Shown here piece after piece: positions 3,718-59,625 of a stretch of DNA of 64,000 nucleotides. Each line of letters opens with the position of its first letter. The first letter of the stretch is position 1. This stretch comes from Deuterostichococcus epilithicus. Lineage: Eukaryota > Chlorophyta > Trebouxiophyceae > Prasiolales > Stichococcaceae. A model generated the notes under the pieces. That model had not been told where the DNA came from. It saw nothing but the letters and a program-made list of their open reading frames with translations, and did not search any database. The stretch is from positions 2,046,001 to 2,110,000 of the forward strand of contig JAVTLE010000001.1 in the NCBI GenBank assembly GCA_033439295.1, in the 5' to 3' direction. The translations under genes and the position numbers were made by a program.

Positions 3718-5231
3718 TTAAACAGGACCTGTAATCGGATGACCGTCACCGTCCATCTTGATGAAGGAGTACTCGAGCAAGTTTTGACATTTTGCCCGCA
3801 AGTTTGGTTCTGCGCTGAAAGCCCGGTACCCATGGCGGTGCATGCCCAAGAAAAACATCTGCATGCCTCCTGTAGTTGTGTGCCATTCACGCGGCAGATC
3901 TTCTCTGAAGGTCACAATTAGCTCGGCGTGCAGCTCGACAAACACCTGCGGCAATAGAACACACGCACATATATGCAGAAGGACGTTCTTGACATTGGTA
4001 GCAACCGGCTATGGGACATTCGCTATACAACTGCATTGACCTTGCGCGCATTGGCCTGACAAGGTCATGACCACAGGAAAGTACTTATGTTGTCACCTGT
4101 GTTGCAGGTATCACTGCGTCAGAAGCCAGCAACTCTGCGAAAATGGGCCACTCCCAGCCCTCGATGTCGATTTTTAAGATGTCGAGCCATGCGATGTTGT
4201 TGTCGCGCATAGAGCCTAAGAGTGTCGTAAAATTGCCACGTTTCTTGGACAGTCGCTCGAGCTGGGCTTCACTGCAACATCAAAGGTCGCAATCCTGGTT
4301 TGCTAGATGATCAGTCCGACAGCTTGGGAGCAATGCGACAGAAAGAGGACACAACTGGCAGAAGAACGACGACTCCCATGGCAACGATTCCACACCTGGC
4401 CATTCCCACAAGGTGCAGGTCTGCCCCACGCACAGAGGCTGATTGTTCCAGCTTCTCTCCCCTCAACGTGTGATCGTAGATGTGGATTTTGCAATGAGGG
4501 TGCGACGTCATGAGTGCATCCTCAAAGGACGTCTCGCCATTGGATCCAAGGCTGTAAACATAGCATTGCGGTTTGTCCAGCAGGCGATCCCTTGCACACA
4601 TCCACTTCCCTGCAGACACAGCAAAGCATTGCTTGGTGCTGGAAAACGGGTTCACATTCAGCTGCCCGGAAACACTTGCACGGAAAGCCAAAGCATGTCT
4701 GTTGCATATGATTGCCTGCTTGTTGGAACTTTGCGTCAGGACAGCGCGCACCTCCATCTACTACGGAACCCACACGCTCCATGAGCGGGCACGAATAGAA
4801 GGGGGCGAAAACGTCCCACAACTCAACTTGACCAGCACGCCGTTCCTCCTGCCGAATTCCTTCGACATAGTCCAAGGCACGCTGCCACTGCCGCTGATAG
4901 GCTGCCTCAACATCACTGTGGGTGATCTGGAATGTCTCCAACGTAGTTGCTGTGGCTGCCACTGCCTGGACGCCAAACAAAATTGTCAGCAATGACTGGA
5001 GCTCCGACAGCACTAGCATGCCGGGAGAGACTGCGAACTGAGCTCGATGAGATCAAGCATTTGCCTACGGAAGGCGTCTCAACTGCACTTGAAAAGGCTC
5101 ACCGCGACATGCGACGATGCGCGAGGCCCGGAGGATCCCCCGGGGTGAAGAGTGTGTATCGCCAGCCACACCACGCACACGGAGGCCACGAGGAAAACCA
5201 ACCATTTCCTGTTGGGTTCCTTGAAGTCCAT
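3718..5231 (-). CDS. METTL24-like secretory methyltransferase
   Basis: Five exons on the minus strand splice with consistent phases: 5231-5103, 5037-4752, 4609-4396, 4271-4097 and 3945-3718, giving 343 residues. The start is the first ATG before a type II membrane segment (KWLVFLVASVCVVWLAI). The body follows the METTL24 pattern. It has WDVFAPFYSCP and ERVGSVVDGGKWMC near residues 115-145, then CYVYSLGSNGETSFEDAL. A beta-strand/helix region leads to LDILKIDIEGWEW (the acidic DIEGWE motif of the SAM fold), and then VFVELHAE. The substrate is unknown; the lumenal anchor and the neighbouring glycosyltransferases suggest sugar O-methylation (inference). It is divergent from the GT92 gene at 5905. 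The donor of exon 3 (AG|GTGTGG) is the least certain junction. Confidence 0.85.
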
Positions 5232-5904
5232 GTCTCGAAACATAGATCAAACAGAGCACCAATCAACGGTCACACTGCTGGACACTAAACGCGCATTTCG
5301 TTGGTGACATGTAGTATGAGGTCGCGACAAACCTGCGACCTGCGGACAGTAGCAGTTCGGGAGGAGAATCAGTTTCAGAAAATAGCATGAGGAAACCAAA
5401 CTGAACTTAAGTCTAATTAGACTATAGTGTAGTGCTCAGTCTGTGTGTGCGCTAACGAGACTAGCACAACCGGGTGGAAATTATTATTATTAACGGAAGC
5501 TAGATTAGTTTTTTAAGCGTTTGGGCAAAAAGGGCGAGGTAACCGGCAGAAGTCAGTTAGTAACCTGGGTAACCGTAATCGGTAATCGTAAACGGGTCCC
5601 AACATCCGGTTACTGACAACCCTAGTCCGCGGTCACTTCATAACCCGCCGGTGGGTAAAATCCCTCGGCCTATACTGCTGACAGGGGGTCCTGAGGCGAC
5701 ATTAGGACGGCGATCCCATTCATTACTGCATTCATACACAGCCGCGATCACGCGCCCGCACAAGCATCCATCATCCGGCAAAACTTACGAGGTCCAGACA
5801 GTTGTTGCAAGTTTCTGCGCTACATCCAACCCTCATTTCGGAATCCAATCCTTCATATCATGCTGCTTGCTCGCCGTTCGTGACAGGGTCGTGGCCGTGC
5901 CAGC
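5232..5904. promoter_or_regulatory. Divergent intergenic region between METTL24-like gene and GT92-1
   Basis: The two ATGs lie 673 bp apart on opposite strands, so both promoters must be in or near this interval. No classical TATA box stands out. A hAT fragment occupies 5505-5624. Shared regulation is possible but not shown. Confidence 0.4.
5505..5624. mobile_element. hAT-type MITE fragment, family H1
   Basis: The stretch matches the right terminal part of the 47628-48148 element: gcgaggtaaccggca, then acatccggttactg, then the terminus caaccct. The left part is missing. It lies in the shared upstream region of two divergent genes. Confidence 0.65.
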
Positions 5905-7887
5905 ATGGCGTCCGTCTTGCGCTTTAATGCGAGGCATCATTCACTGGGATGCTGGCTGCGCGCTCGAAAGTTTATCAAACTTGCCGCTGCCGTGCTGCCT
6001 TCCATTGTTCTCGTGGTGATTGGCGCGGCAGCGGCTGGCAGCTGGCCGAGGCAATGCGCGCCGTCCGGTGGGCTCGTCGCCCCTGAGCTGGCAGCAGACA
6101 GCGCGGCGCCAGCGGTTGCGCCGCGGCTGCACAGCCAGCCGTCACCAGGATTTGACAGCTTAGACAAGGAGTATCTTGCGCTGTGCCTCGCGATCAAGGT
6201 GAGCTTCACTCCAGCCGCTTTTGAAGTTTTTGCTTGCCGATGCTATGCTAGCCGCAAGTTCAGGGCCTCACAACTCATGTCCTTCCACAGGACCTACATT
6301 TGGATGTCAGGGAGTGGGTTGCGCATCACAAGGCGGTGCGATTCTATAGCCTTGATCAATGTAAGTGACCCTGCGGACCTGTACCTGGCACTGCTGACTT
6401 GCCGGCATTTGGTCCGTTGCAGGTTGGGGTTGGCAGAATCTACATGTATGACACAGGTCTGCCCTTTGGCTGCGGCACACTGGCTCGGCGTGCAGCGCGC
6501 GTGAGCCTCAGCTTCATGATGGTGCACATCACATTGCCGAGATGCACAGCAGAAACTGCTGACGGTGTCGATAATCTGGTTGCCTGCAGGCAGCATGCCG
6601 CCATTGAATCGTACTGTCGCAGACCACATAGACTCAGGTTTGGCGCCATCATGCAACCCCTGATGCGAGTGTGCAAGCCTGCACTTCCAGCAGTGGCAGC
6701 GACCTCGTCAGCAAATTATCCTGCTGGGCGCAGGCTTTGTTTACTACACATGGTGGATACCTGATTTCGGCAACTCAACTCATGTGTGAGCGTCGTTCCG
6801 CCCCCTCACACCTCCAGTTGAGCGCATGCCTCACACACTGAGCCGCCCAGCAACTGAAAGTCCTTAACAATCAATGCACAGATTACATCCACAGCATCAC
6901 ATTTATGCCGACTGCATTAGACGAAATAGGATGAAGCATCGCTTCATGGGTAAGTTTCGAGCTTACGCATGGAGCTGGCTGCCTAGCTGGCCAACTCAAA
7001 TACTGGTCGCTCCGGGAACATGTCTTGTCTGTGCTGCCCGCAGGGTTTATCGACTCTGACGAGTATCTTGTGATGAGAAAAGACTCAGCATTCCAAACCA
7101 TACCAGAGCTTTTGAGAGCCTTCACGGCCATTGACGTTGACATTGCAGCGCTCGCTGTGCACTGGGTGCGGTGGCAGCATCATTGCCTTGCAGCAAGCCC
7201 ACTGTTCACATTGCAGCTTCTCCTGCAGCATCCCGCCTGCACTGATGCTCATTATTGCATTTTGCACAGGTCGTTTTTGGCTCCAGCGGGCACCTGGAGC
7301 GACCGCATGGGACAGGGGTGCTCCAGGTGTTTACAAGAAGAAACGTTTGATACCATACCGACATGGTGACGCCAACACGGACATGTGCTGGAGAAGTCGC
7401 TTGGTCTGCATGCTCCAGGCCTACACACGGTGCATACCCGGAGACGACCCGAAGAACGAGGAAGGGCTGCACATTAAAAGTCTGGTCAACACGAGATTCG
7501 TGTTCCCCTTTCCCAAAGAGTGCGACATAACGAACTGCCCATGTTCCCTACATTCGTGCGCCCAATGATATGTGAGCTCCCACTGCAAGCCTGCACGCTG
7601 ATTCCTTGGGTCCTGCCTGCAGCCCGCATCATTTTCGCTATGCAAACGACACATACGCCGTCAACACCAGATTCCAGCGAGTGAATGGCCCAAGGTCACG
7701 GCCAATCACCTACGCACACCTCGTGTTGCACCATTACATCCTGAAGAGCCAACGCGAATTTGAGGCAAAAATCCAGAGGGGTTCGGCTGTCAGGAAGCGC
7801 TATAGGAAGGCACCATACTTTCACCAAATCAACGAGCAAGCCACAGCAGCTTGCATGGATGCCGTCCATTTAGGGCCTTACGAATAG
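5905..7887 (+). CDS. GT92 (DUF23) family glycosyltransferase, copy 1
   Basis: Ten exons splice with all phases agreeing: 5905-6198, 6291-6335, 6423-6456, 6590-6637, 6734-6785, 6882-6949, 7044-7165, 7270-7326, 7419-7519 and 7623-7887, giving 361 residues. The N-terminus is a type II anchor (LAAAVLPSIVLVVIGAAAAG). Family motifs in order are LALCLAIKDLHLDVREWVAH, RIYMYDTG, PPLNRTVADHIDSG, the acidic FIDSDEYL (candidate metal/nucleotide-sugar site), VVFGSSGHL, AYTRCIPG, HIKSLVNTRF, and YAVNTRF near the end. GT92 includes galactosyltransferases acting on core fucose (C. elegans GALT-1); the donor and acceptor here are inferred only. It has three introns that copy 3 (55124-57260) lacks, and it lacks the 19-nt microexon of copies 2 and 3. 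Confidence 0.92.
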
Positions 7888-9560: not shown

Positions 9561-9895
9561 CCCTGGCGACAGTAATGACGCTGGCACTCAGCGGCACAAT
9601 CTTGTAGGCTCAGTGTGCAGCTCTCGTCAAGACGGCGATCCCTGCTCAGCTGTGTCGTCGGTGGACTGTACGCAGGAGACTGTCGCGAGCGGCGCAGTCC
9701 GGCAGGACATACAACTGGAGGGTGCGGTCGACTCGATGTATGTTGCAACTTCACACAGTGAATCCATTTGTAGACCTCTCCGACACGGGGCGTGATGCGA
9801 CCTCGCGGCCTACCCGGAAACGTTCTACTGACTCACCAAATGCAAGAGCAGCCAAGAGCATGAATGCAAATCCTGAACCGCAAGCGATCTGCCAG

Positions 9896-13168: not shown

Positions 13169-13688
13169 TAGGCAATTTTGCAAGCCACACCTTCCCCGCA
13201 TCGCTTTGAAGCCCCCTTTGTTCTTTGGCTCCATGGTATTCCGTGAAAGACTGAATGACTGGGTCACTCATGCAGTACGAGACTGGTTAAGAGGTCGCTA
13301 AACGGTGATTCAATCCCATACTGATTCTCTACAGTTGCCGTTGGGATCTTGGGAAACTGGTGACACTGGCGTAGAAGGCGTCTTCTAGACCTAGGCCACA
13401 GGCCAGTCAGTACTTCCACTGCCTCTGATTCTGCCACGTCTTTTCGTATTGGCCTGCAAAAGCTCTGGCTGACGTTGTCAGAGAGTTTGTCGGGTGCAAA
13501 GGACGCGCGCTGTGGGCACGGCCTGAACTAGTGGGACTTGACCGATCCACGGTTCAATTCACGGGCGCACAACTACAGGTATTGCACAGCTACCAAACTG
13601 TTGACTCTCGAATTGTGGTGTAGCTGGTTCAGTGGCCGTACGTGCACGTCAACATCGCAGTGACACGACTCCATGTATGGCCTTCAGG
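13169..13688. other. Upstream region of GT23-1, nothing named
   Basis: It lies directly before the GT23-1 start. I see no recognisable promoter element or gene. A GGTTCAATTC-like box at about 13550 does not sit in a foldable tRNA. Confidence 0.3.
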
Positions 13689-15245
13689 ATGAAACTGCCT
13701 GTCATCTGCGTCACGAGCTTGGCGGTCTCGACGACGGTGGTGCTCTTCCTTGCCACAGCAGGAACTAGGTGAGTTAGCGAAGGCCCCGTGTCCCTCTGGA
13801 TGCCATTTTGAAAAGTGCATAAAACAGTCAAGGTCAAGACGCAGTTCGCGTGTTCCTGGCTGTAGGCCAGACCAACAATGGGCAGCTACATTGCCGCGTT
13901 TACAGCCTCTCTCTGATGCAGCTGCGTGCAATCCCACCGCCTCACAGCAAGAGCCCGCCAATTTACCCAATGTTGCTCACCATCTTTATTCATCAAAGGA
14001 GCCGGCACCGACGAGTTGTAGCTTTGACAGCATTCCCGGTCTATGGAGCCTTCCACGCCCGTCACACGGAGGTCAGGCTCTCTTTGGGACTGCATTCGCC
14101 CAGAAGGAGATATATATGCATCAACATCCAAAAAATTGCTCCGCCCAAAAGTTCTTGCTACACCAGCCGCAACATGGCGGCATTGGCGCTCATGTACACG
14201 TGATGACGAAAGCGCTGGCGAATGCACTGGAGCTGGGGCGAATCCTACTTGTAGAATTCAGCAACAACACCCACTGGACGGACGACGAGTACTGCAATGG
14301 CCTGCCCAACATCGACGACTGTTACTTCGAAAGAATGAGCTCTTGCAGCCTCGCATCTATCGATGAGGCCGACATGGCGGCTTCCCAGACTTTTGATGGC
14401 ACCAAGGACCAATCCAACATAACAGTCTTGCACGATGTCAGATTCGTCTCCCAGGGCGTTGGCATCGGCAACCCTAAAAATCTGGTACCTGGTGTGTTTC
14501 GCTCATTACTGGCTGTCTCTGGCATTCCAATATCCGGCCGACACTACTGGTGGCGAGCACAAGGTGCAACCTACATCATGCGACCAAACATCAGGACAAT
14601 CGAATCATTGCGGGAGTACCGTGAGCGGCTTTACCATGGCCGTGACAATCTGTCAAAATCGATATCGGTAGGCGATGCGTGTGCACATTGTTCATCAGTT
14701 GTTTGAAGCGACTACTGTCTGACGTTAGGCTCGCAGGTGAAAGTTCCATTGTGCAGGTTTATCGGCATCCTTGCCTTTTCTTGACAACACCTTCCTGATG
14801 CTGCTTCAAACAGGTGCACGTGCGCCGAGGCGATAAAGTACGGGAGGCACCAAACTGCCCCAATGAGGCCTATGCTGAGGCAGCAAATGTCATCTATCAA
14901 AGTTCAAATGTCGCAGTAGATCGTCACATATTCCTCAGCACTGACGACCCTGGTGCCGTGACCTTCTTCAATGAAAGTTCCTGGGCGGTCTCAAGTGCTG
15001 ACACGCATCGGCCCGGCAATGACAGCATAGTAGCACATGGATACAGAGTTGGAATGGCCCGCGAAATGTTAAACAGCCTGCTCAACCTACAACTCGCTCT
15101 CGAATGCTCCGCCTTTGTTGGAACGCTCAGCTCGAATTGGTGCCGGCTGATTGACGAGCTTCGTTCAACGCTCGGCTGCAAAGCTGATATGCCATTCATT
15201 GACCCAATGCAGATGGGCGAGGACTCTTTGAACTATTATTGGTGA
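13689..15245 (+). CDS. GT23 / FUT8-like alpha-1,6-fucosyltransferase, copy 1
   Basis: Exon 1 (13689-13768, 80 nt) encodes a signal anchor (LAVSTTVVLFLATAG) and ends AG|GTGAGT. Exon 2 starts about 13866 (several acceptors keep phase) and ends 14667; exon 3 is 14814-15245. With that acceptor the product is about 437 residues. The GT23 pattern is clear: IYMHQHPKNCSAQKFLLHQP followed by a glycine-rich stretch, then VHVRRGDKVREAPNCPNEAY (HxRRxDK-type GDP-fucose motif), FLSTDDPGAV, SADTHRPGN, and AFVGTLSSNWCRLIDELRST. FUT8 enzymes transfer fucose to the innermost GlcNAc of N-glycans in the Golgi. The paralogue at 24642-26159 has the same exon 1 and exon 3 lengths. The acceptor substrate here is inferred. 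Confidence 0.88.
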
Positions 15246-18932: not shown

Positions 18933-18934
18933 AC

Positions 18935-20017: not shown

Positions 20018-20160
20018 TCGGGGGCTCCCGACCGGACCATCAAGGAGGCTATGTCTGCTCCAAGCGTTTGGGTAGCACATGTCTTGCAGCATTGCAGGAG
20101 GTGTCGACAGCAGTGCTCCGTCCTGTGCCAAACCGCTGTGATGATATGCTATCTTCCGCG

Positions 20161-21306
20161 ATGAGTCTGGCCAACGGTGATACACCCAGAAACATGTTCG
20201 TGTGGCACGCGCCTGGCCGTGCGTACCTCCCGCTCCTCTACGTCTCCGTGTTACTGATTTCAGCATCCCTGCAGCCGTGCAGTGCAATAGACGTCAGTCT
20301 GGCTGCTGCACCAAGACGCCTCCTGCAGAAGAACGGACTGGCTGGTCTCAACACTTCCTACATCAAAGGTCAACTCGAACAGGTGTGGAAACAAGGACCC
20401 CTGCTAACCGCATGCTTGTGAGAAGCCTGGTGCCTGTCGGGCGTCTGAGCGTGTAACCCAGGTATCGCGTGCTTGATCCCCAGGATCTGTGGGTCCTGAC
20501 ACAACACCCAACTCCTGGTGTATACCTCGACCTTGGAGCCCGAGACGGTGTCAAGATATCAAATACATACGCCCTGGACAAGCATGGCTGGTCTGGATTC
20601 TGCATCGAGCCGTTTCCCGCCCACTTCGAGGAACGCACGTGTACGCTTGCCCAGGAGGTTGTGACTCCAAACACTGGCCAGGTGGTCGAATTCATCAGGT
20701 GAGTCCGACGGCTTCTTACCTTGCCTGTGTATGCCCGCAGTATATGAAGCGGCTTTGCAGCATAAAGTGTAGCATTTATATCTTGCAGCAATGTGCATAG
20801 TCTGACCCTGCAGGGCTGGAACAGGGTTAGGCGGCGTCCTGGACTCCATGGGCAAAAATAAGCCAAATGAAACGAACGTGGATAAAACCGTCAAGATGAC
20901 GAGCATTTCTATCAGGGATCTTTTCAAGAAGTACAATGTGCCACCCACCATCACATACTGGAGTCTTGACACGGAGGGCAGTGAACTCCAGTTGTTAGAA
21001 GCATTCCCCTGGAAGGAGTACCGGGTGGAGATGATCACAGTGGAGCACAACTACGAGGAGCCAAAGCGAAGTCAGATCCGTGAGCTTCTGCTACGACATG
21101 ATTTCCGCCTAGTTCAGGAGGTCCGGTTTGATGATTGGTACCAGCTGAAGGACTTCGGACACAGCTCATCCGCCAAGTCAATCGGTGTCAAATACAACGA
21201 GGTTGCCACGAGGTGTCTGTTGTTTGTTATTGGTGGCTTGTGCGCCTTTATCATGGCGCGCTATCATTACGCCGCTGTCAGGCGGCATGATGCAAGGAGG
21301 GTGTGA
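20161..21306 (+). CDS. FkbM-family methyltransferase 1, membrane-anchored
   Basis: Three exons: 20161-20382, 20484-20698 and 20814-21306, all phases consistent; 309 residues from 20161 or 298 from the ATG at 20194. A hydrophobic N-terminal segment (YLPLLYVSVLLISASLQPC) targets it to the secretory pathway. The FkbM (Methyltransf_21) fold shows as GVYLDLGARDGVKISNTYAL (SAM loop), GWSGFCIEPFP, and ITYWSLDTEGSELQLLEAFP (DTEG in place of the usual DVEG). A second hydrophobic segment (LLFVIGGLCAFIMARY) lies near the C-terminus. FkbM enzymes methylate hydroxyls, often on sugars; the target here is inferred. Which of the two ATGs is used is not decided by the sequence. Confidence 0.85.
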
Positions 21307-21479
21307 CATCATGTGTAGTCTAAAGCTGTGGTGACTGATCAGCTTGTCCAAAAAGCTATAGTTGTTGCGGTTCATTGGGCATTCGTCACACATTGTAAGC
21401 TGGCGACATTGTGCACTCACTTGCGCATCACGCATGACGGACTATCCATTGGCAAGCTCAAGCTACCCGCACTCACAGG
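21307..21479. other. Short intergenic spacer after FkbM-1
   Basis: I saw nothing notable. The last eight bases form the left target duplication of the next element. Confidence 0.3.
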
Positions 21480-21897: not shown

Positions 21898-21905
21898 CTC
21901 ACAGG

Positions 21906-22539: not shown

Positions 22540-24460
22540 GGCACAGCTAACTCAAGGGCCCTTGCAAAGTCATCGAGACATCTGCCGCTGACAAGTCATC
22601 GGAGATAGCGCCCAACAAACTGACCATGTGGGTACGGGACGAACATCTGCCTACCAGCCAAAGGTGCAAGACGGCTGCCGAGGCGTGGGAGACGCCAGAG
22701 TCAAAATTCACCCGGCAAGCAGCAATGCACAAGTACTCATGCTCAAGCAGCAAATGTCCGCCTTGCACATGGAGCCAAACGCGAACGTGGCGGCCTATGT
22801 AGTACGCGTGCGCCGCATCGCAAGCCAGCTGCTCTCGGCCATCAGCACGCTCACCGACCATGACGTGCTTCTCAGCATCCTGAACCACCTGCCGTCGGAC
22901 TACATCGTCATCAAGACCTCACGAATACCGATGATGACGCTCGATGCGGCACTCGCCAAATCTGCTCACCATCGAGGCGCAGCTGCCGCAAATTCATGTG
23001 TACCAAAACAGCAAGGCATTCGGAGCCTTTTGCAACGACCGCGGCCGCCCACCTGCCGCCAACAGGGTGCCCGCGAAGTCGCCCACACGTGAATGCTGCT
23101 TGTGCCACAAGAAAGGCCACCTCATGCGCGACTGCCGCAGCCGTAAGCATTACAAGCGCGTGCATAATGGGGCACACAAAGACACAGTGGCCCTCGCCGC
23201 CGTTGCGACATCCACAGCCGAGCATGTGGCGCTCTCGGCTACCCATGCCTCGACGAGTGGCTAATCGACTGTGACGCTACCTACCACATCACCAACGAGT
23301 ATGGGGGCTCGCAAAATTCCCAGCCGCCGTTGCGGCCAATGACATCACCTTTGGCGAGGTATCGGCTCTTGTCACTGCCATCGGGAACGTGTACCTACCC
23401 AATAGCTGCCACCACCCCAAGGATCACCCTCAAGGACGTCCTGTACGTCGAGGGCGCCACTGTGAACCTCCCGTCCGCCAAGCGAGTAACTACCGCCGGT
23501 GCCGAGGTCTTCTTCACCCAAACATGTGCTGGCACATCTGTCGGCAGCTTCACGGTCGCATACATGCCGTGTGCTAGCAACGACGCGTACAACCTGGGCT
23601 GCATTGACGATGCGGCCCCATAGCCATTCCCCTTGTTTGGCAAGGCGCTTATGGCGGCGCCCAAGTCGTCCACAGCCCACACAGCCGTCAAGGAGACACC
23701 AGAGCTGTGGTACCGCCGGTATGGCCACCTCGGCTACACCAAACCTCGGACGCCTGTCGGCCAAGGGCATGGTGACTTGCTTGAAGACCACCATAGTCAA
23801 GTTCTCCGACGCCGCACAACCGATGTGCGATTTTTACATCGAGGCAAAGCAGCAACCGCTCCTCTACTGGATATGGGCAGCGGACTCCGGGAGCTAGTCT
23901 ACAGCAGGAGGGCATTGACTTCGACGGAATGTTTGCCCCAGCGAGTCAGCACACAACCCTACTTACGTAGTCTCTTGGCCCTAACTGCCGCCAAGAACCT
24001 GGACCTCCATCAACCTGATATAAAGACTGTCTTCCTCAATGGCACGATTGGGGAAGAGGTGTATATCAGCCAAGCCTCGGGCTACGGCAATTGCAACACC
24101 AATGCGGTTTGCCGCCTGTACATGCCGAAACCCTGTTATGACGCGTATGGACCCCGTCCAAGAATGTGATCCGCTAACTCGCCAACACCAAGAGAATTAC
24201 CAACGACAAGGCAAGCGATCGCCCCCTTGCGATCATCGGCCACACTGATGCCAACTATGTTGGAGACCTGGACAGGCGCTGCTCAACCTCGGGCTTCGTA
24301 TGGTACCTACTCTATGGCGGGGCGAACAGCTGGCACAGTCGCTACATCATCCGCGGACGAGGCCGAATGCATGGCAGCCGGCATGAGCATAAACGAAGCG
24401 ATCAACCTGCGGCAACTGCTTGCCGCCTTTCACTCGTTTCTGATTCCTTGGAATCACTAT
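22540..24460 (+). mobile_element. Ty1/copia retrotransposon fossil, broken
   Basis: Recognisable parts in order are a gag-like region (about 22630-22990), a CCHC zinc knuckle (about 23090-23150, CxxCxxxGHLxxxC), a gag-pre-integrase patch (about 23700-23760), reverse transcriptase fragments (about 23900-24170) and an RNase H patch (about 24235-24400). Much of the integrase and polymerase is absent. No LTR pair was recognised. Several breaks are present, so it is an old inactive copy. It ends about 180 bp before the GT23-2 gene. Confidence 0.8.
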
Positions 24461-41796: not shown

Positions 41797-44700
41797 TCAG
41801 AATACAGCCGGGCTCCGTCCTTTGCATCTGTAGGTGCACAGTACGGCAGGTGCTGCTGCATAGCATGCACCAGGCTCCTTGTGAAGTTTTCGAGCATGCA
41901 GCGCAGCTTATCGTTATACGATGGGCTGGCATTCTGTGCAATCGCATGACATGAGCTGCAGCTGCCATGTTGTGCACAGGGGGTTTAGAGTGGGAAAGCA
42001 ATGCATGGAGGAGCAGTCACCCCCAGTCGGCATGGAGTCGTCAAACCGCAGCCAGTGGCTCGGCACCACCTCAAAAGCCTCGTGGTAGCGTTTGCGTTCT
42101 GCACAACCCGGCGGTCGGGCAAAGCAGTCTTACTCCTTCAGGGCGCGCATGCTTGCGTTCTTGCGACAATGTTACAATGCCAACAGTATCTGAGCAGGCC
42201 GATGCCATGCAAATGCGTGGTGGTACACCAGAGGCACCTGAGTTGTCCAGCACGAGAATGCCCCCCTGTAATAGGAGCAGCCGTTTCAACTGTTAGCATT
42301 GCTGCCTTGGCAAGCTGCATTTGGCAGCGCCTGGCACATGCCAGCGTGACGATCAGAGCACCAGATAATTGTTGTCACAGCTGCGGGCTCCCCTTGCATT
42401 GCATGCTGCCGCAGCACAGCGATGTACCTCGGGCTTGAGCAGTGGTAGGGCGCGCTTTACACATGCGACGCGCGAGCGGCCGTCCACGACAATGTAGTCA
42501 AAGACCCCCTTCTGATCCGGCAGGAAACTGGCTGCTACATACTCCCTGCAAACAGGCATGTTCAAAACCCTCAGCCTGGTTTCCTTGAAGACACGCAGAT
42601 CGTTGTCCGTCGTAAGGTGCCAGACGAGCCCTGAACCAGTAGAGTTGGGGCTGGACGCCGCCTTGTCCCTGTATGCCTGACATGAGACCCAGGTCAGGAG
42701 CGATTGTCTTCAGTTGGAACGCAATAGCTTCACCCACTTCAACATTGGGGCATTGCAGAAGAGAGATGACCAGTGTATCTGACTGCAGAGAGCGTCGCAA
42801 GGCGGCATGTTCGTGTTGCAAATATTACGCTGGTAATGTGCACCGTTGCCTGACGAACCAGCCTGCATGCCGTCCAAAAGTGACAGTAGTATAGCACTCT
42901 ATAGCTATATCCTTTGCTGCCACACTGCGGCGCATCTCCCCACCCGGGTCCACCATGTGCCCTCTGTGCACGCTGTCAGGCAGCAGTGAAGAGACGTCAG
43001 GCCGCAGCAATGCCCCCTAGTGGCCCGATTGGTTACCCAAAGCTGCTGGGATCGTTGAACTGATCGCCGGCCCCCGATGGCGAACCCCGCGGCACCGTAT
43101 GCGACACCCAATGCTGCTCCAGGTAGTCGGCCCCAAACATGCTCTCCAGCGACGCTTTCACCTGCGAAAGCAACAGTGCTGAGAGACGCAGCGCAATGTC
43201 CAAACGCAGGAATGGTCGAAACTCAAGGGGAGGTCAGGTCAACACAGCGAGAAGGGTATTGTGGCGGCATCCGAGCCATCCGATGCCTGTCTTGTACTGC
43301 ACTTGGTCAGGCAGCAACTGCCGAGCATGCTGATGCAGGCAGGAGAGGAGGGCGTCATCAGCACAGCTAGCAAGATGCTCGAGCAGCGCAGCGTCGCAAC
43401 AGCCAAAATGTTTTGTGATCCTGCATCATATCTGCTCTGACTAGGGTCTGATTGCAGCTGCGTGTGTGACAGAGCCTTACCTGCGGGACCCAGCCACCGT
43501 CATGCTCGATGGAGGTCAGCCGCCCAACGCGCACCAGGTTCCATTGAGACGAGGAGCCGGAACCCCACTCCAGTGCCTCCATGCCTGCAGGGCACAGGGG
43601 CAATATGAAATTAGACCTTAATGGATGCGCGCATCATGACCTGCAGGTGGCGGGCGCATGCACCCTCACCATGAGCAATGCGGCAAACTGCACGGCTAAC
43701 CAAGGCTTGCAGGCAAATCGATATACAGACTAGAAGGTCACGTTACACAATTCACTGCCCGCTAGCGGGAGAAGATGCTTCTAGGCCCGACCCTGGACAT
43801 GAGGTTTCTTCTGCCATGGCATGCACTGCGAGGCAGTCAGGTGAGCAATTGCAAGACCCCTGACTTTCGACATTGAGAAGAAGCTGGGCTATGAACATGA
43901 TGGTTGTTGAGCACAGGGTAGAGCCGCAGAATCCTCGGCAACTCTCGTAAAGGGCCTCTCCACAACATATCACTCCTCGTTTGTCAGCAGCTGCTTCGGC
44001 ATCATGCCATCGTGATGACAGAAGAAAGGCTACTGAAGACCTTCTCAAACTCCCTTGCTCACCGGTGTCGAGTAGCTGGTCCAGCATGACGATGGCATAG
44101 CGTGCCATCCACGGCTCGCAGATATTGCCAACATAGAATGGTGCACCCTGGTTTCTCGGCCGATGCCCAATGCCCCGGTCCGCTGGACAGTTTGTCATCG
44201 TGAATACCTGCGATACAAGATTGTTGACCAGATGCGAACCTCGAGGACGACAGCTAGCAAATGCTGCACACAGTCAGCCGCTGCACCATTTTGCTGGTGG
44301 GATATGAGTGCGGCAGAGACTGGAGCGACACGTGTGGCTAGGTTTTGGAAGCACATGAATAGGAAGGGAGGGCAGGATGCAGAGGGTGCGCTAGCGACAG
44401 CGGCGCACCTTTTTTCGTCCGTATGCTCGCATGCGGGCCACACGCTCCTCAGCCCCCCGGAAGCGATCAAACATGCCGGAAGCAGTGGCTTCTATGTTGT
44501 GTGCAGCGGCCATCGTTGTCCCTCCAGGCGGGCTTAGGGTTTGCTCGGCTGCACGATCGATATATGGTTGGCAGCAGCTAAAGAGAAAATTTTGAGGGGC
44601 CAGCAACTGTGGCCGGCAGAAATCCGCACCTGTGGACCCCTGGCCTTGTGGCAAGCTGACGCTCTTTTCATGAACTGCACTGTGCACATGGCCCAAATGG

Positions 44701-44807
44701 GCCGTGCCACCCACGATCAGCAGTATCACCGCGACAGCCACAAGCGTTCTGGCCCTTGATGGCGGCTCGAGCCTGCAGATGTATTGCAGACATTGCATGG
44801 ATGACAT
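41797..44807 (-). CDS. Class I SAM-dependent methyltransferase, membrane-anchored
   Basis: Seven minus-strand exons agree in phase: 44807-44409, 44207-44063, 43584-43481, 43161-43037, 42545-42428, 42265-42238 (28 nt) and from 42098 to a stop at about 41797, giving about 406 residues. The N-terminus is a type II anchor (RTLVAVAVILLIVGGTAHLG). The catalytic part reads EALEWGSGSSSQWNL (SAM-binding glycine loop), LTSIEHDGGWVPQ, FDYIVVDGRSRVACV and LPLLKPEGGILVLDNS followed by ERKRYHEAFEVVPSHWLRFD. This is the 'WGSGxST / SIEHD / VDGRxR / LDNSERxRY' pattern of a small algal and bacterial methyltransferase group whose substrate I do not know. The last 45 or so residues are uncertain, since an extra intron may remove them. 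Glycan methylation is inferred from neighbours. Confidence 0.78.
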
Positions 44808-48148: not shown

Positions 48149-48156
48149 ATCGACGC

Positions 48157-49218: not shown

Positions 49219-51026
49219 TTACTCTCGCCGGCTGTTCGCCCTTCTGAGGCGACCACACAACAGCCAAGCTGAGATGCCAAATCCAAAACCAACACATGCT
49301 GCAAGAAGCAGCTGCAGGGTGCCGACATTGAGATTGTCGTCAACCTGTTCAATGTGATCAGCGGCGTCCTCTGGAATCGGGCCCACGTCCGCATCCCCCA
49401 AGAGTGCATCGGCGTCTGCAAGCTCCTCCGGAAGCTCATCGGCATCAGCTAGCTCTGGATCGGCCAACTCCGGCAGTGCATCCACCACATCGGCGTCCGC
49501 CTCCTCCAGAAGGGTCGGAGCCTCATTGTTCGTGAATACGAAATACTCGCCCCACCGACTCCTCTTGAAACTAAGGCTGGCGAAGGCCTCCAACACAGTC
49601 GCCGTCGAGCGATTGTTGTACCTGTCGTGCGTCTCTATTGACACTAGTGAGGCGTGGCCCAGAAAACCTGGAGCTCTAGGATCCGAAAACACCTTGACTT
49701 CCGACCCTGCACAATCACCGCTTGGATTGGCTACAGTACAGATAACCATTGTTGTGGTCTTTTCGCAACACAATTTCATGACGACCTTCCTGCCATCAAG
49801 CCAGTCACCCTCGGATCACCTTCAATGTCGATTTTCAAGTAGTTGAAACCCTTGATCCCAAGCTCTGTCAGCAAGCTCGGTATGGTCACTGCAGACAGAG
49901 TGTCGTTGCCCGGCTCATTCACTTCGACCACGGAGGAGCCCTGCAGAGGAGAGAGATCACATTCGCTGTGAGAGTCCGTCCAAGCGCTAGCCCGGCTGAA
50001 TAGCACTCGAGCAGCGGCTAGTGCGCTGTGGCAGCGTGCACAGGCTGACGTCAGGCGCACCACAGATCCTCTTTTGCCTGAGCTGCTCAGACTGAGCTGA
50101 GTCACCTTGTCCCATAGCCCCACCTGTGGTGCATCAGGATCTGAACCGTCCTCGACTTGCAGCACTGGATTAAGCTCAGGAGAACATGCACCCAGTTCGG
50201 ACAGCTCCTCACGTTTCTGGGGTGGATATTTGGCGCCATCGCAGCGTTGAGCTTGAGCATCGCAAAATTCGCGGGGTCAGGCTCGAGCGCAACGATGTGC
50301 GCTTTTGGCCAAAGAGCCGCAAACACTCTCGAGGCCAGTCCAACGTTGGCGCCAGCGTCCAAGACGTATTGGGGAGCCCAGCCAAGGTCCATGAGAAACC
50401 CTGCAATTTGATAGGGTGATCAGGATGCAGTCAAAGCGGCAATGCTCGATGACAGACCAGATGACTCCGCCCCATGCATCAGAGTCGACGAGCGTGACTC
50501 ACCGTACTCGTTGTGACCAAAAAGGTTCCTGATCACGCCCGCATCTGTGGCCTGCCCATCACGTATGTGAACCACGAGGTCGCAGCAGGCTGTGGCTAAG
50601 CTGCCGCACGGAAAATCGTGTACCGTCACGGGGACGATGTTCGTCTGCCAAGGAGGATTCGATACAAGTCAGCGGGTATCCAAACCTGTCGAGCTTGGCA
50701 TGGCGCTCTTCACGACACAGGACTACGCACCTCATCTTTGCCATGGTGCATCATCTTCACCAGTGTGCCCACATTGTAAAGCTGGCCCGGCATGCCAGCC
50801 AAGCTGAATCGTTTCTCCTTGAGGTTCACAGGCCTGCACTTTTGGTCATATGTGCCGACGGGCCGGGCGCCTGCGCAAACATACAGCAATCCCCTTTTTT
50901 CGAGCCGTGGCGCACGCGCTCAGCCTTACGCTCGCTGATACTTGGGTGCGTACCTGCTGGGACGCTCCATCCCATGCACCCAGCCAGAAGCAAGCACAAC
51001 ACCACAGCAGCTGTTTGCATGGTCAT
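49219..51026 (-). CDS. FkbM-family methyltransferase 2 with acidic stalk and C-terminal anchor
   Basis: Seven minus-strand exons fit in phase: 51026-50954, 50870-50731, 50644-50503, 50400-50213, 50123-50061, 49940-49820 and 49706-49219, giving 404 residues. A cleavable-looking signal peptide (AAVVLCLLLAGCMGWSVPAG) opens it. The SAM fold shows as VLDAGANVGLASRVFAALWP, HIVALEPDPANFAMLKLNAA, VGLWDKVTQLSL, and FNYLKIDIEGSEVKVF (the DIEG motif), then LVSIETHDRYNNRS. It ends with a repetitive Asp/Glu/Ala stalk (LPELADPELADADELPEEL region, about residues 315-365) and a C-terminal membrane segment (LQLLLAACVGFGFGISAWLL) with an Arg-rich tail, giving a type I lumenal topology. It is probably a sugar O-methyltransferase; the target is unknown. 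The acidic stalk is unusual for FkbM proteins. Confidence 0.87.
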
Positions 51027-51880: not shown

Positions 51881-54560
51881 CTAAACGTAAGGGCCATAGC
51901 GAGATCCTTCTAGGCAGTCTTTAGTGGCTTTGTTCTCGATCGACTTGAAGAATGGCTCCCCTTTGTGCCGCCCTGTCAGCAGGGTATGCATCCTCGGAGC
52001 AGGTCGGACATGCCATGCATGTAACCGGTCAGCTGACCCTTCCATATTGTACAACAAGCATGCGGGCAGAGACTCACCCATGCCAGTGCCGCGCTCGTGC
52101 TTTGCCCAAAACTCCTGGCGACATGCACATGCGGCAGCACTTCTGAGCACACATCTGCTCGATGTCAACCCAGCTGTCTCAACAGCGTTATGAGCACAAG
52201 AAGCTCTTGGCGACGATGTTTCAAATCACTCACACCTCATGACTCTTGATTGTGTAGTGATTCAGCTGAATCCAGTCTGTAGTGTAGTCGTTTAACCGTG
52301 GACCATCCACACGCTGCAGCTCAATGCAAGGGCCATGCGGTTGCTACCATGTCACATGAGGACCCGATGAGCACACTTTAAACAGGAAGAGCAGGGTGGT
52401 GGTGGAGGAGAATTGCGGTCGTGAGCAATGAGCACATCGAGAAGCAGGCTGAGCAGGCACCTGGAAATGCTCGTTCACAGCATACTTGCCGTCGGTGTAG
52501 AAAAAACTGTGCGGGCTGCGATCACGGCAGGAGGTACTGTCACCGCACATTGGGCAAGCAATTGACAGGCTTTCCGCATGCTTTGCGAAAGCAGCAAGTC
52601 CAACATCGTCACAAGAGGGGTGCCGCACTCTTTCGGGCGCGAAACGAAATCGGTGCTAGCAATCGTCTTCACGTGGCGGCACTGCCCGCATGGCCGGGGC
52701 AGGCACTTCGTGTACTCCTGCGCAGGGTGAGTGCCAATTCTGGTCGCATTCGTGACAGGGAAACGCCACATGGACGACTGGCGTTATAATGAGTTCCCAC
52801 GGCAAAATCTCCCGGCGGCCGCCATGGAGATCACTGCAGCTCGTTTGCTGCTGCGCGCTGCTGCTGCTGCTGCTCAAGCCTGCAACCGCTCGTGTCGTCG
52901 TGTTGCAGCCGGCAAGTTGGCAGCCCCGAACCACCCTAAACCTATGTTTTTTGCACCTGAAGCACGCCGCCTTCCGGCCGTTCCTTGTGGCCGCTCGACC
53001 CAAACAGCTCCCAGTTCACCACCAGGCCGCCAATGGGCTCGAAGGCCTGCAGGTGCCGCAAGAGGTCTGGCACCGTCGCAAATCGGTCGCCCCGCAAGAT
53101 GAGGAACTGCGGGGCAAGGGGGGCACAATGGCCAACGGTTTAGCGCTGCTCCTGCAGGTTTTGCCACCCTGGGTTGGCCGGCCTGCAAATGTATGATCAG
53201 TGGCCATTACAGACGAAGCAGAGCGAATGCAGGCTGGGCGCTGGGCATGACAGCCAGCAATGGTGAGCTGTGGTTTCCGGCACAAGCTGAGGCGTTTGGT
53301 CAACCTCCCAAGGGCCGCATACCTCATCTGAGTCTGTGAAGGCTGCACGGCAACATGAGCAGGGCCTTGCTGTGGAGATATGCACAGAGCAGCATCAACG
53401 ACGAAACTGCAGCATCGGACCAACATTTGGTACAGCACCCGCTTATGCACAGAAGACTGGGATGCATCGTCGCACCTAGGAATTGGTGCTGATCACGAAA
53501 CCGCGAAATGCAGTCTATCCACACCTGCGCAGCGGCAACATATGCAAGATGAGGTACGATGGTCGCAGGCGTCTTGCACCTGTGCCACAAAGTGGTGCTA
53601 GCTGCTTTCGTGGGGCATCAAACTCGCCTCCATCTGGACATATCGCCTGCAAATGGAGGAAATCCGCATCCCTCACCAGCGCTGCTGCAGAACAAGGGGT
53701 AGGCGAAATGCAGTTCGCCGACCCTGACAAAGGATATGGCTACGCCATCAGCGAACTCACTTGTGCGTCGCGTTGCCAAAGTCCGAGGGCCAGTATACAT
53801 ATTCCACCAAGCCTGATTCGATGTGGTCGGCCACCGTATCGTTGAGCGGCGGGTCGCTCCCTGTGCCACGGGTGGATGGGAGCTCGCGTAAGCAGGCACT
53901 GTGCGGCGCTTTCAAGGCCGGATGGCACACAAATGGGCAGCTGGACTCGCACCAACACTGCAGAGGCTCACCTGTGTCGTAGAGATAGACCCTCCCTGCT
54001 CCAATCTGTGGCACATCCCAGCATCTCAGAGGGTTTGGTCGGCTCTCGTAATAGCTGAATGACACGTGCCGACAGCAACAGCAGCAGCACTTTTCACAAC
54101 CACTCACCGCTTTATGGTGCGCCACCCACTCCCGGAGGTCCAGGTGGAGGTCCCGGATGCTGAGGCACATTGCCAGGTACTGGTCTCCATACTGATCAGC
54201 TTCAGGCGCCTCCGCCGCAACGCTGGCCTGCTGGTCGTGACCCAGATCCTGCTCCTGCTGCTGCTGCTGCTGAGCTTGCAGCTGCTCGTTGCACAACGCC
54301 GCTACATTCACGCCGTCTGCCTCACGCTGGTTCGATGGTGCTGCCTCCGCAGGCTCTAGCCCCTTGTAATGGCGGATGGCTGCATCAAGGCTGCTGCCCC
54401 TGTGCGTCAGATTTTGCTGATGCGATGCAAATCGATATACCAAATGCTGCGTGCTGCTGTCCCTGAGCTGCAGCCACAGCAACACGCCGAGCGTGGTTAG
54501 CACAACTGCCAGCAGGAGCAGGAGCACGCGGCCGTGGTTGCGGCGCCGGTCAGTGGGCAT
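51881..54560 (-). CDS. GT92 (DUF23) family glycosyltransferase, copy 2
   Basis: Twelve minus-strand exons are all in phase: 54560-54108, 54005-53972, 53860-53761, 53646-53628 (19-nt microexon), 53524-53476, 53342-53323 (20 nt), 53106-52957, 52717-52629, 52515-52461, 52313-52236, 52114-52078 and 51960-51881, giving 387 residues. It has a strong type II anchor (RVLLLLLAVVLTTLGVLLWL) and a Gln-rich stem (QAQQQQQQEQ). Motifs: YLAMCLSIRDLHLDLREWVA, RVYLYDTG, PPLNDTVADHIESGLVEYVY, VWIDCISRFRDQHQFLG, the acidic TDSDEFL, NWELFGSSGHKERP, EYTKCLP, CRHVKTIAS and YAVNEHFQ. The microexon is followed by a GC donor (GAG|GCGAGT). It is probably a Golgi hexosyltransferase, by family a candidate beta-galactosyltransferase (inference). 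It is divergent from copy 3. Confidence 0.92.
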
Positions 54561-55123
54561 CACAGCTGTTTGCGGCCCTGTAAAGCCGTATGTGGCTGGC
54601 TATTACATCCCCCGCTGCTCAAGCGCTGCACCGCGGCGGTGATTTGCACCTAGTGTCAGGCTCCTGCTCGAGGACGGCCGACATTCAACTCAACGGTCTC
54701 TGTCATGTGGTTAGCATATGCCGCAAAATTTTGTGCGCAATTGCGCTATTTGAAAGTTGAACAAATTCTGTTGTGTTGCAACGAACAAGGCGTCAACACG
54801 CAGCAGAATACGCTGCAGCCGCAACAACCAGGCGGAGTTGGCATGGGTCTCGACGATCGGCTCAAATGTCAGAACACAGACATGCCCGCGGTATGATGCT
54901 CTGCCATGAAGCACAGGAAGCATGTCAGTATGTCAGATGTCCTAGAGTGGTCTGGGGCTCTGGGCCGTAAAACCCTAAACCAAGCGCAACAAAGCCGTCA
55001 AATTGGTGCACATGTGTGCGGTATTTGCCTGTGCTTCGGAAGCAATGACGATTTGGGCTGCATCAGCATGCAGCAACGCTGCCAGACTGTCGTGATGCAC
55101 CAAAATCCTGATTGGTGTGAGCT
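54561..55123. promoter_or_regulatory. Divergent promoter region shared by GT92-2 and GT92-3
   Basis: 563 bp separate the two start codons, which point away from each other, so one interval must serve two paralogues. No obvious core promoter word. I saw no transposon in it, unlike most other gaps here. Confidence 0.45.
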
Positions 55124-57260: not shown

Positions 57261-57911
57261 AGGAGGGAATGCAGCACATGTTGGTCTTTCGCTTGAAGGA
57301 AGGCTTCTTTTTGGACAATGCGTTTACGCATCGTATGAGTAAGGTTTGTCGAATGGCACATCTGCTTGACCTTTGCTGAAGATTTTAGGACAGAGCCACA
57401 GTGACAGCGGGTAGGATCGAATCTCTATTGTTTCATGTGTTTATTCATCTTCTGTTGACAAACCTGGGAGTGGTCGGGGTCATACCTGTGCATGCCCAAA
57501 AATCCCAACCAGCAGCGGCGTGCCACAGAATTAAGCTAGCAACTCATCATAGCGCATCCTGCTTACCGACATCTCAAGTAGGTACGACATACCTCTGCCC
57601 ACATTTCGCTGCCTGGAGGCATCTCTTCTTATGTATCACTTCGGCATGGTGTAAGCTTTATCTGTGCAAGGGCTCGCCACCACAACATGCCACTGACAGT
57701 TGGCTTTCAGTTCATGGGAACGACCAAATCAGCACCACCTTCGACTAACGGCTCTGCTACACCTGGGCATCGAGACGTGTCAACGCACTTGCGATCTTGC
57801 AGTTTTCTCAGGCTCTGCAACAAATTTTTCCCGGCCCTTTCCCAAACGGTTTGGTATTGTGGATGCCTGCGGAGTGCGCGCACACCAAAAATTAATTCGC
57901 AGCAACTTCAA
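57261..57911. other. Spacer between convergent GT92-3 and GT2 genes
   Basis: The two genes converge here. I saw no gene or mobile element. Confidence 0.35.
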
Positions 57912-59625
57912 TCACAGCAAGCACCACTGCGCCAAGATGTCCAAAGCGTGCACCTTGTAATGATAGACGAAGGTGCCCGTGTGCAGGCAAAGCTTTGCAT
58001 TTCCGTCTCGTGCTATGCGATTCGTCAGCTCCGTTTCTTGACCCAAGTTGCGATTCTTGGGATTGAACAGATGCTGGCTGTCAAATGCGAGTCTGGTGAT
58101 GCTGCGGCGCGCTGCAAAGAAGAAGCCTACAGCAAGAAGAAACGAGAGTCGCCACTGCAGACATGCACCGTTCCCCTTTGTCGCTCGGGTCCCATCATAC
58201 CAATGCTACTTTGGAAATTGACCAACGCATGTCCCACCTGAAAATCCTTTAGTTTCATGCAGTTTCCAGCTTTCGTGCACAAACGCTGTGCTTGCGCAGC
58301 CACTGTTGTCCATTATGTCCTGCAAATAAGACCATGGTTGATTTCCATTCTAGACGCACCGGCAGCTGCACTTGAACAGCACAGAGCGCAAGCACACAAC
58401 CGAACCTGCACTCGCTGGTAGTTTATAGGGTTGTTCACGAAGCCCTTCGTGCTTGAATTTAGGTTGAAGAGTCTCTCGACGCCTTCTGCCTTCCAGCTTC
58501 CTTTCCCTCCCACCGTCGAGAGCGGACATACCACGTCGCAGTCGCCGCCTGTGCTATCCAAAAGTGAAAGCATCACGTCTACGAGAGCCTTGCCACGAGC
58601 TGCCTCCACACCCGGCACAAGGTGCGCACTCCATAACACGCACCATCTGGCGTCATGGCGTGCAGCAGGTCACCAATGACGCCGTCCGGTATCAGCACGT
58701 CGTTGTTGCTGATGATCAGCGCGTCATGTTCTGTCTGCAGCCACAGCTGGTATGCCAGGTTCCAGTTGAAGGTGACGCCGTTCGACGCCGGTGGCTGCAC
58801 GTACCGCACGCCGGCCTCTTCTAGGCGTTCAGGCGTCCCGTCGCTGCTCAGCTCGTCTACGACCTGCGGGCGGGCTGGGTTTTGGCTTCAGAGTCTGTTG
58901 GGTCCGGCGAGGCCATCCTCCAGTGTAAATTTGCAAGCAAACACATATGGGCCCACCCATTCAAGCCTCACCAGCAGCTCAAAGTCGTCCCTGATGGCTG
59001 CGAGCGAGTGGAGCAGCAGTTCAGTCTTTGGCCACACATTTGCCGTGGGCACGGCAAACAATGCCGATAGGTCTGCGCCCCGCGGCTTGGAGGCCTCCCG
59101 TTGCTTCAAGTCGAATCTTGGGCCTCTGGAGGCTCTGCCAGAAGCGAGCCGTCCGTTCCAGCCCCCTGCGCTGTCGGACGCTGCAGCCGCGTCTAACATC
59201 TCGCCAATCTGCACGAGGTCCGGGGAGAGTTTTTTTGGCCGCAAACAAGGTATGCCAATGTGTGATTTAGATGTGTTAGAAATCTATGGTGCATGGGCAC
59301 AGGTATCAGCTCACCCGTTGTTTACATTCAGGCCATGCCAAGCCAGGCTGCAGCTTGCGGGTGGAGCTCTGCAGCCACGGCATCGTACAAAACTCACGGC
59401 GCAGTCCTGGCAGTGAGCATCTGGCTTTGTGCATGCACGCCCAGGATTCAGTGCTTCGTCTGCACCAGGAAGCGTTCAAGTGGTCACCTGCACTAATGCC
59501 CCCCCCGCGGAGCTGCTGAGCATGGTCCGTTGCATGAGTAGCCCAACGAGTGCGACGACGACGAGGGCACCAACAGCTGCCAGGCGTCTCGTCTGTCGAA
59601 TCTGACCCGCGTGCGAGTCCGCCAT
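57912..59625 (-). CDS. GT2-like (GT-A fold) glycosyltransferase
   Basis: Minus strand. Exons 59625-59488, probably 59368-59315, then 59208-58972, 58863-58644, 58548-58406, 58319-58238 and 58126-57912 fit in phase, giving about 362 residues. The N-terminal anchor is LAAVGALVVVALVGLLMQ. The nucleotide-sugar domain reads KTELLLHSLAAIRDDFELLV then VDELSSDGT, VTFNWNLAYQLWLQTEHDAL and IISNNDVLIPDGVI (DXD-like NND), then CDVVCPLSTVGGKGSW. After a short exon come GFFFAARRSITRLAF and NLGQETELTNRI, followed by FVYHYK, typical of rhamnosyl/glycosyl GT2 proteins. The role is inferred from the family as transfer of a sugar to a growing glycan. The 54-nt second exon is the least certain part, since direct splicing of exon 1 to 59208 also keeps frame. 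Confidence 0.8.

What the first reader, a model, noticed from the sequence alone, without database searches (positions are those of the whole stretch)
3718..59625. A 56-kb eukaryotic cluster of unrelated glycan-building and glycan-capping enzymes
Thirteen consecutive recognised genes are all secretory-pathway enzymes of the kinds that build or decorate glycans: GT92 x3, GT23 x2, GT37-like, GT47, GT2, two FkbM, one METTL24-like and one other methyltransferase, and a PC-esterase/TBL-like protein. Nearly all carry an N-terminal membrane anchor. Eukaryotes rarely cluster non-homologous glycan genes. The layout recalls bacterial polysaccharide loci but with spliced, alga-type genes. That they form one pathway is inference.
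Basis: partly seen in the sequence, partly recalled or inferred. Interest (0 to 1): 0.93.

Follow-up and report, generated by a model that had tools for sequence, protein, structure and literature searches.

The report
Algal cluster of surface-sugar enzyme genes
In what is probably a green alga, thirteen neighbouring genes for enzymes that build, methylate or otherwise modify surface sugars sit together in a repeat-rich stretch of DNA, an arrangement that resembles the virus-resistance chromosome of some tiny marine algae.

Summary
The cluster is real. I built spliced models for all 13 genes. Ten pass curated Pfam cut-offs (Methyltransf_22, three GT92, two GT23, two FkbM, GT47, GT2). A GDSL/NXPE-type esterase and a methyltransferase have sub-threshold or indirect support; the 'GT37-like' name is unproven. 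Each gene has a hydrophobic N-terminal segment in or just upstream of its model. Between them I recognised only a broken copia element, in a partial scan of the gaps.

Three claims need correcting. The enzymes are not all unrelated: two sets are paralogs, and the METTL24-like protein also passes the FkbM cut-off. The layout is not like a bacterial polysaccharide locus: no sugar-nucleotide, flippase or polymerase family was found, and strands are mixed among repeats. Eukaryotic precedents exist: the Mamiellales small outlier chromosome, linked to virus resistance, and the fungal galactosaminogalactan cluster.

Best reading: an old, duplicating 'surface-glycan toolbox' of Golgi enzymes in an intron-rich, probably green alga, beside a higher-GC V-ATPase gene. 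One shared pathway is unproven; synteny and expression could not be tested here.

The parts
3718..5243 (-). METTL24-like (Methyltransf_22) methyltransferase, spliced; anchor exon at about 5172-5243; 3' end uncertain
   Evidence: Pfam PF13383 98.4 bits, also PF05050 23.4 bits; anchor
5905..7887 (+). GT92 glycosyltransferase a, about 10 exons
   Evidence: PF01697 54.7 bits; exons; DSDE motif
13677..15245 (+). GT23 (FUT8-type) fucosyltransferase-like a
   Evidence: PF19745 40.9 bits; profile of both copies matches FUT8 structures, E 2e-8; HVRRGDK motif
20146..21334 (+). FkbM-type methyltransferase 1
   Evidence: PF05050 54.2 bits; below cut-off of NCBIfam fkbM_fam; 3' end approximate
22592..24166 (+). 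degenerate copia-type retroelement inside the cluster (not a glycan gene)
   Evidence: Retrotran_gag_2 4e-7 and RVT_2 3.6e-8 in separate broken frames
24642..26159 (-). GT23 (FUT8-type) fucosyltransferase-like b, paralog of GT23 a; 5' part uncertain
   Evidence: PF19745 38.3 bits; 68% identical to copy a; dN 0.23, dS saturated; anchor at about 26.1 kb
28766..30463 (-). putative fucosyltransferase, 'GT37-like' (weak assignment)
   Evidence: XG_FTase 11.5 bits, E 0.11, collinear C terminus; IQIR motif; anchor 2.40
34011..35864 (-). GT47 exostosin-type glycosyltransferase
   Evidence: PF03016 54.5 bits
38067..39316 (+). GDSL/NXPE-type (PC-esterase/TBL-like) esterase or acyltransferase, 2 exons
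   Evidence: Lipase_GDSL_2 25.1 and NXPE4_C 21.6 bits, both below cut-off; GDS at residue 129 and DYLH at 357
41914..44807 (-). SAM methyltransferase of unassigned family, many short exons; 3' end approximate
   Evidence: PDB 3cvo E 0.0005; Methyltransf_24 E 0.11
49219..51026 (-). FkbM-type methyltransferase 2, signal-peptide-like start
   Evidence: PF05050 31.8 bits; NCBIfam fkbM_fam 53.6 bits, above cut-off
51881..54560 (-). GT92 glycosyltransferase c, head-to-head with GT92 b
   Evidence: PF01697 65.6 bits
55124..57260 (+). GT92 glycosyltransferase b
   Evidence: PF01697 63.3 bits; 60% identical to c
57912..59625 (-). GT2 glycosyltransferase; anchor ORF at 59625 not joined to the body by the gene finder
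   Evidence: PF00535 37.9 bits; anchor ATG 59625
60566..64000 (-). flanking V-ATPase catalytic subunit A (partial, runs off the window): right-hand neighbour, not a glycan gene
   Evidence: ATP-synt_ab 166.6 bits and ATP-synt_VA_C 99.3 bits; best PDB chains 526 and 520 bits; GC3 0.786, intron GC 0.632

Best explanation
This is a genuine island of at least 13 genes for Golgi/ER enzymes that build and cap surface glycans, in an intron-rich, probably green alga. Shown: the genes, their families at the confidence stated, hydrophobic N-terminal segments, an old GT23 paralog pair under purifying selection, repeats, and a higher-GC housekeeping neighbour. Inferred: fucosyl- (GT23, GT37-like), GT92, GT47 and GT2 transferases assemble a branched glycan; FkbM and METTL24-like enzymes O-methylate its sugars; the GDSL/NXPE-type enzyme adds or removes acyl groups. 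The island grew by local duplication and was kept together as a toolbox for varying surface sugars (N-glycans and/or wall or exopolysaccharide), functionally like the Mamiellales small outlier chromosome but inside an ordinary intron-rich chromosome. It need not be one linear pathway.
For: Families. Anchors on all 13 against 9 of 185 control ORFs, with the caveats on start choice given under the observation check. GT23 a/b: 68% amino-acid identity, dN 0.23, pN 0.20 against pS 0.77 (dS saturated), so an old duplication with both copies constrained. Shared intron before VHVRRGDK in both GT23 genes. 26% of intergenic DNA is repeated within the 64 kb, against 8% of genic DNA. Cluster genes GC3 0.59-0.73 and intron GC 0.49-0.57, against 0.79 and 0.63 for the V-ATPase neighbour. 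Precedent with the same classes: 12 GT and 7 methyltransferase genes among 34 identified on the Bathycoccus SOC; a GT92 and an FkbM on O. tauri chromosome 19. Chlorella-clade N-glycans are diverse and O-methylated.
Against: Only one flanking gene is in the window, so the GC difference rests on 308 codons and could be a housekeeping-gene effect; the rise is gradual and starts at about 58.5 kb, inside the GT2 gene. PMC3797821 says that most or all of GT2, GT37 and GT47 (among others) are missing in the green and red algae it examined, which speaks against the GT37 name or against a host like those algae. No shared promoter word exceeded the null. No nucleotide-sugar or transporter gene such as the SOC carries was recognised. 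Synteny, expression and glycan structures were not testable; the species is unknown. Three of the 13 family names are weak.
Confidence: 0.58

Rival explanations
1. A dedicated biosynthetic gene cluster: the 13 enzymes act in one ordered pathway on one glycan and are kept together by co-regulation or co-inheritance, like the fungal galactosaminogalactan cluster.
For: Complementary activities (several transferase families, methylation, putative acyl modification) and a hydrophobic N-terminal segment at all 13. Eukaryotic precedent with five co-regulated genes (PMC4817252). No other gene family recognised in the 33 gap ORFs scanned.
Against: No committed precursor, transport or polymerising enzyme was recognised. 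No shared promoter word above the null. Strands are mixed. Three GT92 and two GT23 copies look like family diversification rather than single steps of one route.
Confidence: 0.2
2. A genomic-compartment effect: fast-duplicating families collect in a repeat-rich, lower-GC stretch where gene order is loosely held; the neighbourhood has no joint function.
For: Repeats fill 26% of intergenic DNA and a broken copia element lies inside; paralog sets; lower GC than the neighbour.
Against: All 13 recognised genes are of one broad functional class; a neutral compartment should also collect other expanding families. The GT23 pair stayed linked although its synonymous sites are saturated.
Confidence: 0.2
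3. Viral or bacterial import: the block came from an algal giant virus or a bacterium carrying glycan genes.
For: Prasinovirus and chlorovirus genomes carry glycosyltransferases (recalled); an alien origin was once proposed for the SOC.
Against: All 13 models contain introns, of the same splice type as in the V-ATPase neighbour. Scans of IMG/VR gave no relative for 3 of 4 queries, and for GT92 only 10 loci at 26-36% identity; a GTDB scan with GT23 gave none. These scans start from short peptide patterns and find mainly close relatives, so absence is weak evidence. No gene trees were made.
Confidence: 0.02

Closest known systems
Small outlier chromosome (SOC; chromosome 19 of Ostreococcus tauri and Bathycoccus) of Mamiellales
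   Same: Glycosyltransferases and methyltransferases are the two dominant identified classes, including a GT92 and an FkbM gene in O. tauri; lower GC than the rest; repeats, transposon-related genes, paralogs in different contexts
   Different: SOC is a whole small chromosome with few introns, many unknown genes, epimerases and sugar transporters; here a block of about 56 kb, spliced, beside a housekeeping gene, with none of those other classes recognised; virus link untested
Aspergillus galactosaminogalactan (GAG) biosynthetic cluster
   Same: Non-homologous glycan genes, including a transferase and a deacetylase, physically clustered in a eukaryote
   Different: Five co-regulated genes with an epimerase and a deacetylase for one known polymer; here 13 genes with paralog sets, different families, no known product
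Bacterial capsule/O-antigen loci (recalled)
   Same: Several transferases plus methyl and acyl modification together
   Different: No sugar-nucleotide, flippase or polymerase family found; spliced genes on both strands; anchored Golgi-type enzymes
N-glycan repertoire of Chlorella-clade algae (PMC7383745)
   Same: Fucose, rare O-methyl sugars and strain-level diversity are what such enzymes could make (passages)
   Different: Chemistry known; in the passages seen no gene cluster is linked to it; the host here is unidentified

Membership tests
Mamiellales small outlier chromosome (SOC) | Enrichment in glycosyltransferase and methyltransferase genes | tested here: met
   Family-level hits, with the GT37-like gene and the esterase weak
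Mamiellales small outlier chromosome (SOC) | GC lower than the rest of the genome | tested here: inconclusive
   Lower than the one flanking gene, but the rise begins inside the GT2 gene; rest of genome not held
Mamiellales small outlier chromosome (SOC) | Whole separate small chromosome with few introns | tested here: not met
   Adjoins a V-ATPase gene; most models have several introns
Mamiellales small outlier chromosome (SOC) | Differential expression in virus-resistant lines | not testable with these tools
   No expression data held
Eukaryotic biosynthetic gene cluster (GAG type) | Non-homologous enzymes physically linked | tested here: met
   Several families within 56 kb; all-against-all BLASTP links only the two paralog sets, plus one pair at E 0.15
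Eukaryotic biosynthetic gene cluster (GAG type) | Co-regulation and one shared product | not testable with these tools
   Only a promoter-word test, which was null
Eukaryotic biosynthetic gene cluster (GAG type) | Synteny in relatives | not testable with these tools
   No eukaryotic genomes held; viral and prokaryotic scans not informative
GT23 (FUT8-type) | FUT8 catalytic domain with the HVRRxDK signature | tested here: met
GT37 | XG_FTase domain at curated cut-off | tested here: not met
   11.5 bits against 23.4
PC-esterase/TBL | PC-Esterase domain at curated cut-off | tested here: not met
   That model is not among the hits; only GDSL and NXPE4_C, below cut-off; GDS and DxxH motifs present

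The most novel reading that the evidence does not exclude
A surface-glycan diversification island, convergent with the Mamiellales virus-immunity chromosome, has evolved inside a conventional intron-rich chromosome of another alga, and is a genetic basis of the unexplained strain-to-strain diversity of methylated, fucosylated glycans in such algae.
Probability: 0.28. Interest if true: 0.8.

Novelty: new variant of a known kind. Interest (0 to 1): 0.56.

Why it matters
The genes behind the diversity of algal N-glycans and wall sugars are, to my knowledge (recalled), mostly unassigned. A compact island holding candidate fucosyl-, GT92, GT47, methyl- and acyl-modifying enzymes gives a short list to test. 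If it varies between strains and tracks virus or symbiont specificity, the idea that algae keep hypervariable surface-sugar loci would extend beyond Mamiellales.

Tried and rejected
Giant-virus or bacterial origin: no close relatives in four IMG/VR scans and one GTDB scan; only GT92 gave loci, ten at 26-36% identity. Bacterial-type polysaccharide operon: missing parts, mixed strands. Common promoter word: no 7- or 8-mer above the null. RNA genes: none. Single-sequence AlphaFold of the large GT37-like exon and of the esterase exon gave mean pLDDT 33.1 and 34.7, useless, so no fold search was made. The first gene-finder run collapsed into over-splicing and was discarded. The second, whole-window run chained genes together across the gaps; I kept only region-limited models and dropped by hand the zero-length exons and some terminal exons that the finder allowed. 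The GC table used partial exon lists, so its 'introns' contain some short exons. The novel-case probability was lowered from 0.30 to 0.28 on rechecking, because the GC rise starts inside the GT2 gene and PMC3797821 reports GT37 and GT47 mostly missing in the green algae it examined. Papers: PMC3491373, PMC5082852, PMC3797821, PMC7383745, PMC4817252 and PMC11106453 were seen as found passages only; all others as search listings. I know of no SOC-like island in print outside Mamiellales, but this rests only on searches of an open-licence library, whose listings were often capped (25 of 461, 20 of 215, 25 of 60, 12 of 508).
Full report
What was checked. The window is 64 kb of eukaryotic DNA with no tRNA gene and no Rfam match at gathering score; no whole genome is held for it. 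I translated stop-to-stop frames, wrote a small splice-aware gene finder, discarded a run that over-spliced and one that chained genes, and kept region-limited models, edited by hand. The flanking V-ATPase subunit A served as a sanity check: its exons join into a protein matching solved V-ATPase A chains at 526 bits (36qu, organism not shown), 520 (7uw9, a plant enzyme, recalled), 489 and below (entries recalled as mammalian) and 377-372 (entries recalled mainly as yeast). This agrees with, but does not prove, a green-lineage host.

The genes. In order: METTL24-like (-), GT92 a (+), GT23 a (+), FkbM 1 (+), a broken copia element, GT23 b (-), GT37-like (-), GT47 (-), GDSL/NXPE esterase (+), a methyltransferase (-), FkbM 2 (-), GT92 c (-), GT92 b (+), GT2 (-), then V-ATPase A (-). 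Ten of 13 pass curated Pfam cut-offs. By the NCBIfam fkbM model FkbM 2 passes, and FkbM 1 and the METTL24-like protein do not. The esterase is below cut-off but has GDS and DxxH motifs. The methyltransferase is supported by PDB 3cvo at E 0.0005. The GT37 label rests on an 11.5-bit collinear hit and an IQIR motif, so it is a lead, not a membership; and PMC3797821 states that most or all of GT2, GT37 and GT47 (among others) are missing in the green and red algae it examined.

Same cell compartment. Twelve starts scored 1.73 to 2.84 on a 19-residue Kyte-Doolittle window; GT23 b scored 2.03 in one alternative model. Only 9 of 185 intergenic ATG ORFs reach 1.6. The comparison is not fully matched: for six genes I picked the start by looking upstream, mostly for a hydrophobic segment, and the GT2 anchor was not joined to its body by the finder. 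The picture fits type II or signal-bearing Golgi enzymes, as expected for GT23, GT47 and GT92 (established knowledge).

Are other genes hidden between? Of 357 intergenic ORFs of 55 aa or more, 94 had a coding score of at least 3.6; 33 of these, whole or in part, were put to Pfam at E up to 1. The only hits were Cox20 (0.043), Replitron_HUH (0.078) and EpmC (0.095), all below cut-off. So 'no other recognised family' holds for that part only. An exon pair at about 8.85-9.2 kb (+) looks protein-like and has no family.

How related are the parts? All-against-all BLASTP links GT92 a/b/c (43-60%) and GT23 a/b (68%); one further pair, GT23 b with GT92 b, came up at E 0.15 and is noise. By profile, the METTL24-like protein also passes Pfam's FkbM cut-off and the GT92 proteins pass a GT2-type model, so there are about five superfamilies (my grouping, partly recalled). 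The two GT23 genes share the intron before the catalytic motif; dN is 0.23, pN 0.20 and pS 0.77, that is, synonymous sites are saturated. So they duplicated long ago, both stayed under purifying selection, and they are still 9.4 kb apart.

Setting. 25.6% of intergenic bases recur within the same 64 kb, against 8.3% of genic bases. The longest pair is 778 bp at 90%, inverted, at 17.7-18.5 and 39.7-40.5 kb. An element of about 500 bp recurs at 19.5, 36.4 and 47.7 kb (69-74% identity), with pieces at 0.2 and 5.5 kb. Cluster genes have GC3 0.588-0.725 and intron GC 0.494-0.572; the V-ATPase neighbour has 0.786 and 0.632 (from partial exon lists). The rise is gradual and begins at about 58.5 kb, inside the GT2 gene, so with one flank gene this is suggestive only. 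The left border is not seen: no gene was recognised in the first 3.6 kb, where 4 ORFs were scanned.

Chance. The five green algae of Table 1 in PMC3797821 have 0.43-0.77% of genes as glycosyltransferases. Under an assumed 3% for every glycan class and ten independent units the run is about 2e-14 per position. Coincidence of independent placement is therefore very unlikely, but compartment effects are not excluded.

What it most likely does. Inferred: fucosyl-, GT92, GT47 and GT2 transferases build a branched glycan; FkbM and METTL24-like enzymes O-methylate it; the esterase-like enzyme handles acyl groups. Chlorella-clade N-glycans show such variety, with arabinose, fucose and several O-methyl sugars (PMC7383745, passages). 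Whether the target is N-glycan, wall or exopolysaccharide is open.

Known relatives. The Mamiellales small outlier chromosome is the closest known thing that I found: in Bathycoccus 12 glycosyltransferases and 7 methyltransferases among 34 identified genes, low GC, no synteny between species; in O. tauri a GT92, an FkbM gene, shuffled paralogs and transposon-related genes, with expression tied to virus resistance. PMC3491373 says such chromosomes were not found in Chlamydomonas, Volvox or Chlorella, and Mantoniella tinhauana lacks detectable ones. The present block differs in being spliced and adjoining a housekeeping gene, and no epimerases or transporters were recognised in it. The fungal GAG cluster shows that eukaryotes can cluster non-homologous glycan genes for one polymer. 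So the block is a new variant of a known kind, not a new category.

What could not be done. No eukaryotic genomes, expression or glycan data were available. Viral and prokaryotic scans gave no syntenic block: GT23 none, GT92 ten loci at 26-36%, esterase none, FkbM none in IMG/VR, GT23 none in GTDB. These scans favour close relatives, and the ten loci were not read.

Noticed in passing
22592-24166: Degenerate copia-type retroelement (gag and RVT_2 pieces above cut-off, Pol_BBD and gag_pre-integrs below, in broken frames) between FkbM 1 and GT23 b.
   Followed up: partly
8853-9320 (+), antisense ORF 8915-9346 (-): Protein-like exon pair with no Pfam family; could be an unrecognised gene inside the cluster.
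   Followed up: partly
17719-18476 and 39687-40461: Inverted repeat pair, 778 bp, 90% identical; neighbouring stretches of the 17.7-19.4 kb block match at 0.8-1.3 kb (92%) and 9.9-10.4 kb (83%).
   Followed up: partly
19520-20020, 36360-36831, 47654-48152, pieces at 199-421 and 5515-5624: Dispersed element of about 500 bp, 69-74% identical between the three long copies, all outside gene models.
   Followed up: no
58500-64000: GC rises gradually from about 0.54 to 0.62 (intron GC 0.63 in V-ATPase A), starting inside the GT2 gene.
   Followed up: partly
51881-57260: GT92 b and c lie head-to-head with 563 bp between their starts and contain micro-exons; GT92 c seems to use a GC-AG intron (read by eye).
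   Followed up: partly
276 and 30856: Two single N bases in the window.
   Followed up: no
L001-L010: IMG/VR contigs encode distant GT92-like proteins (26-36% identity to GT92 c).
   Followed up: no
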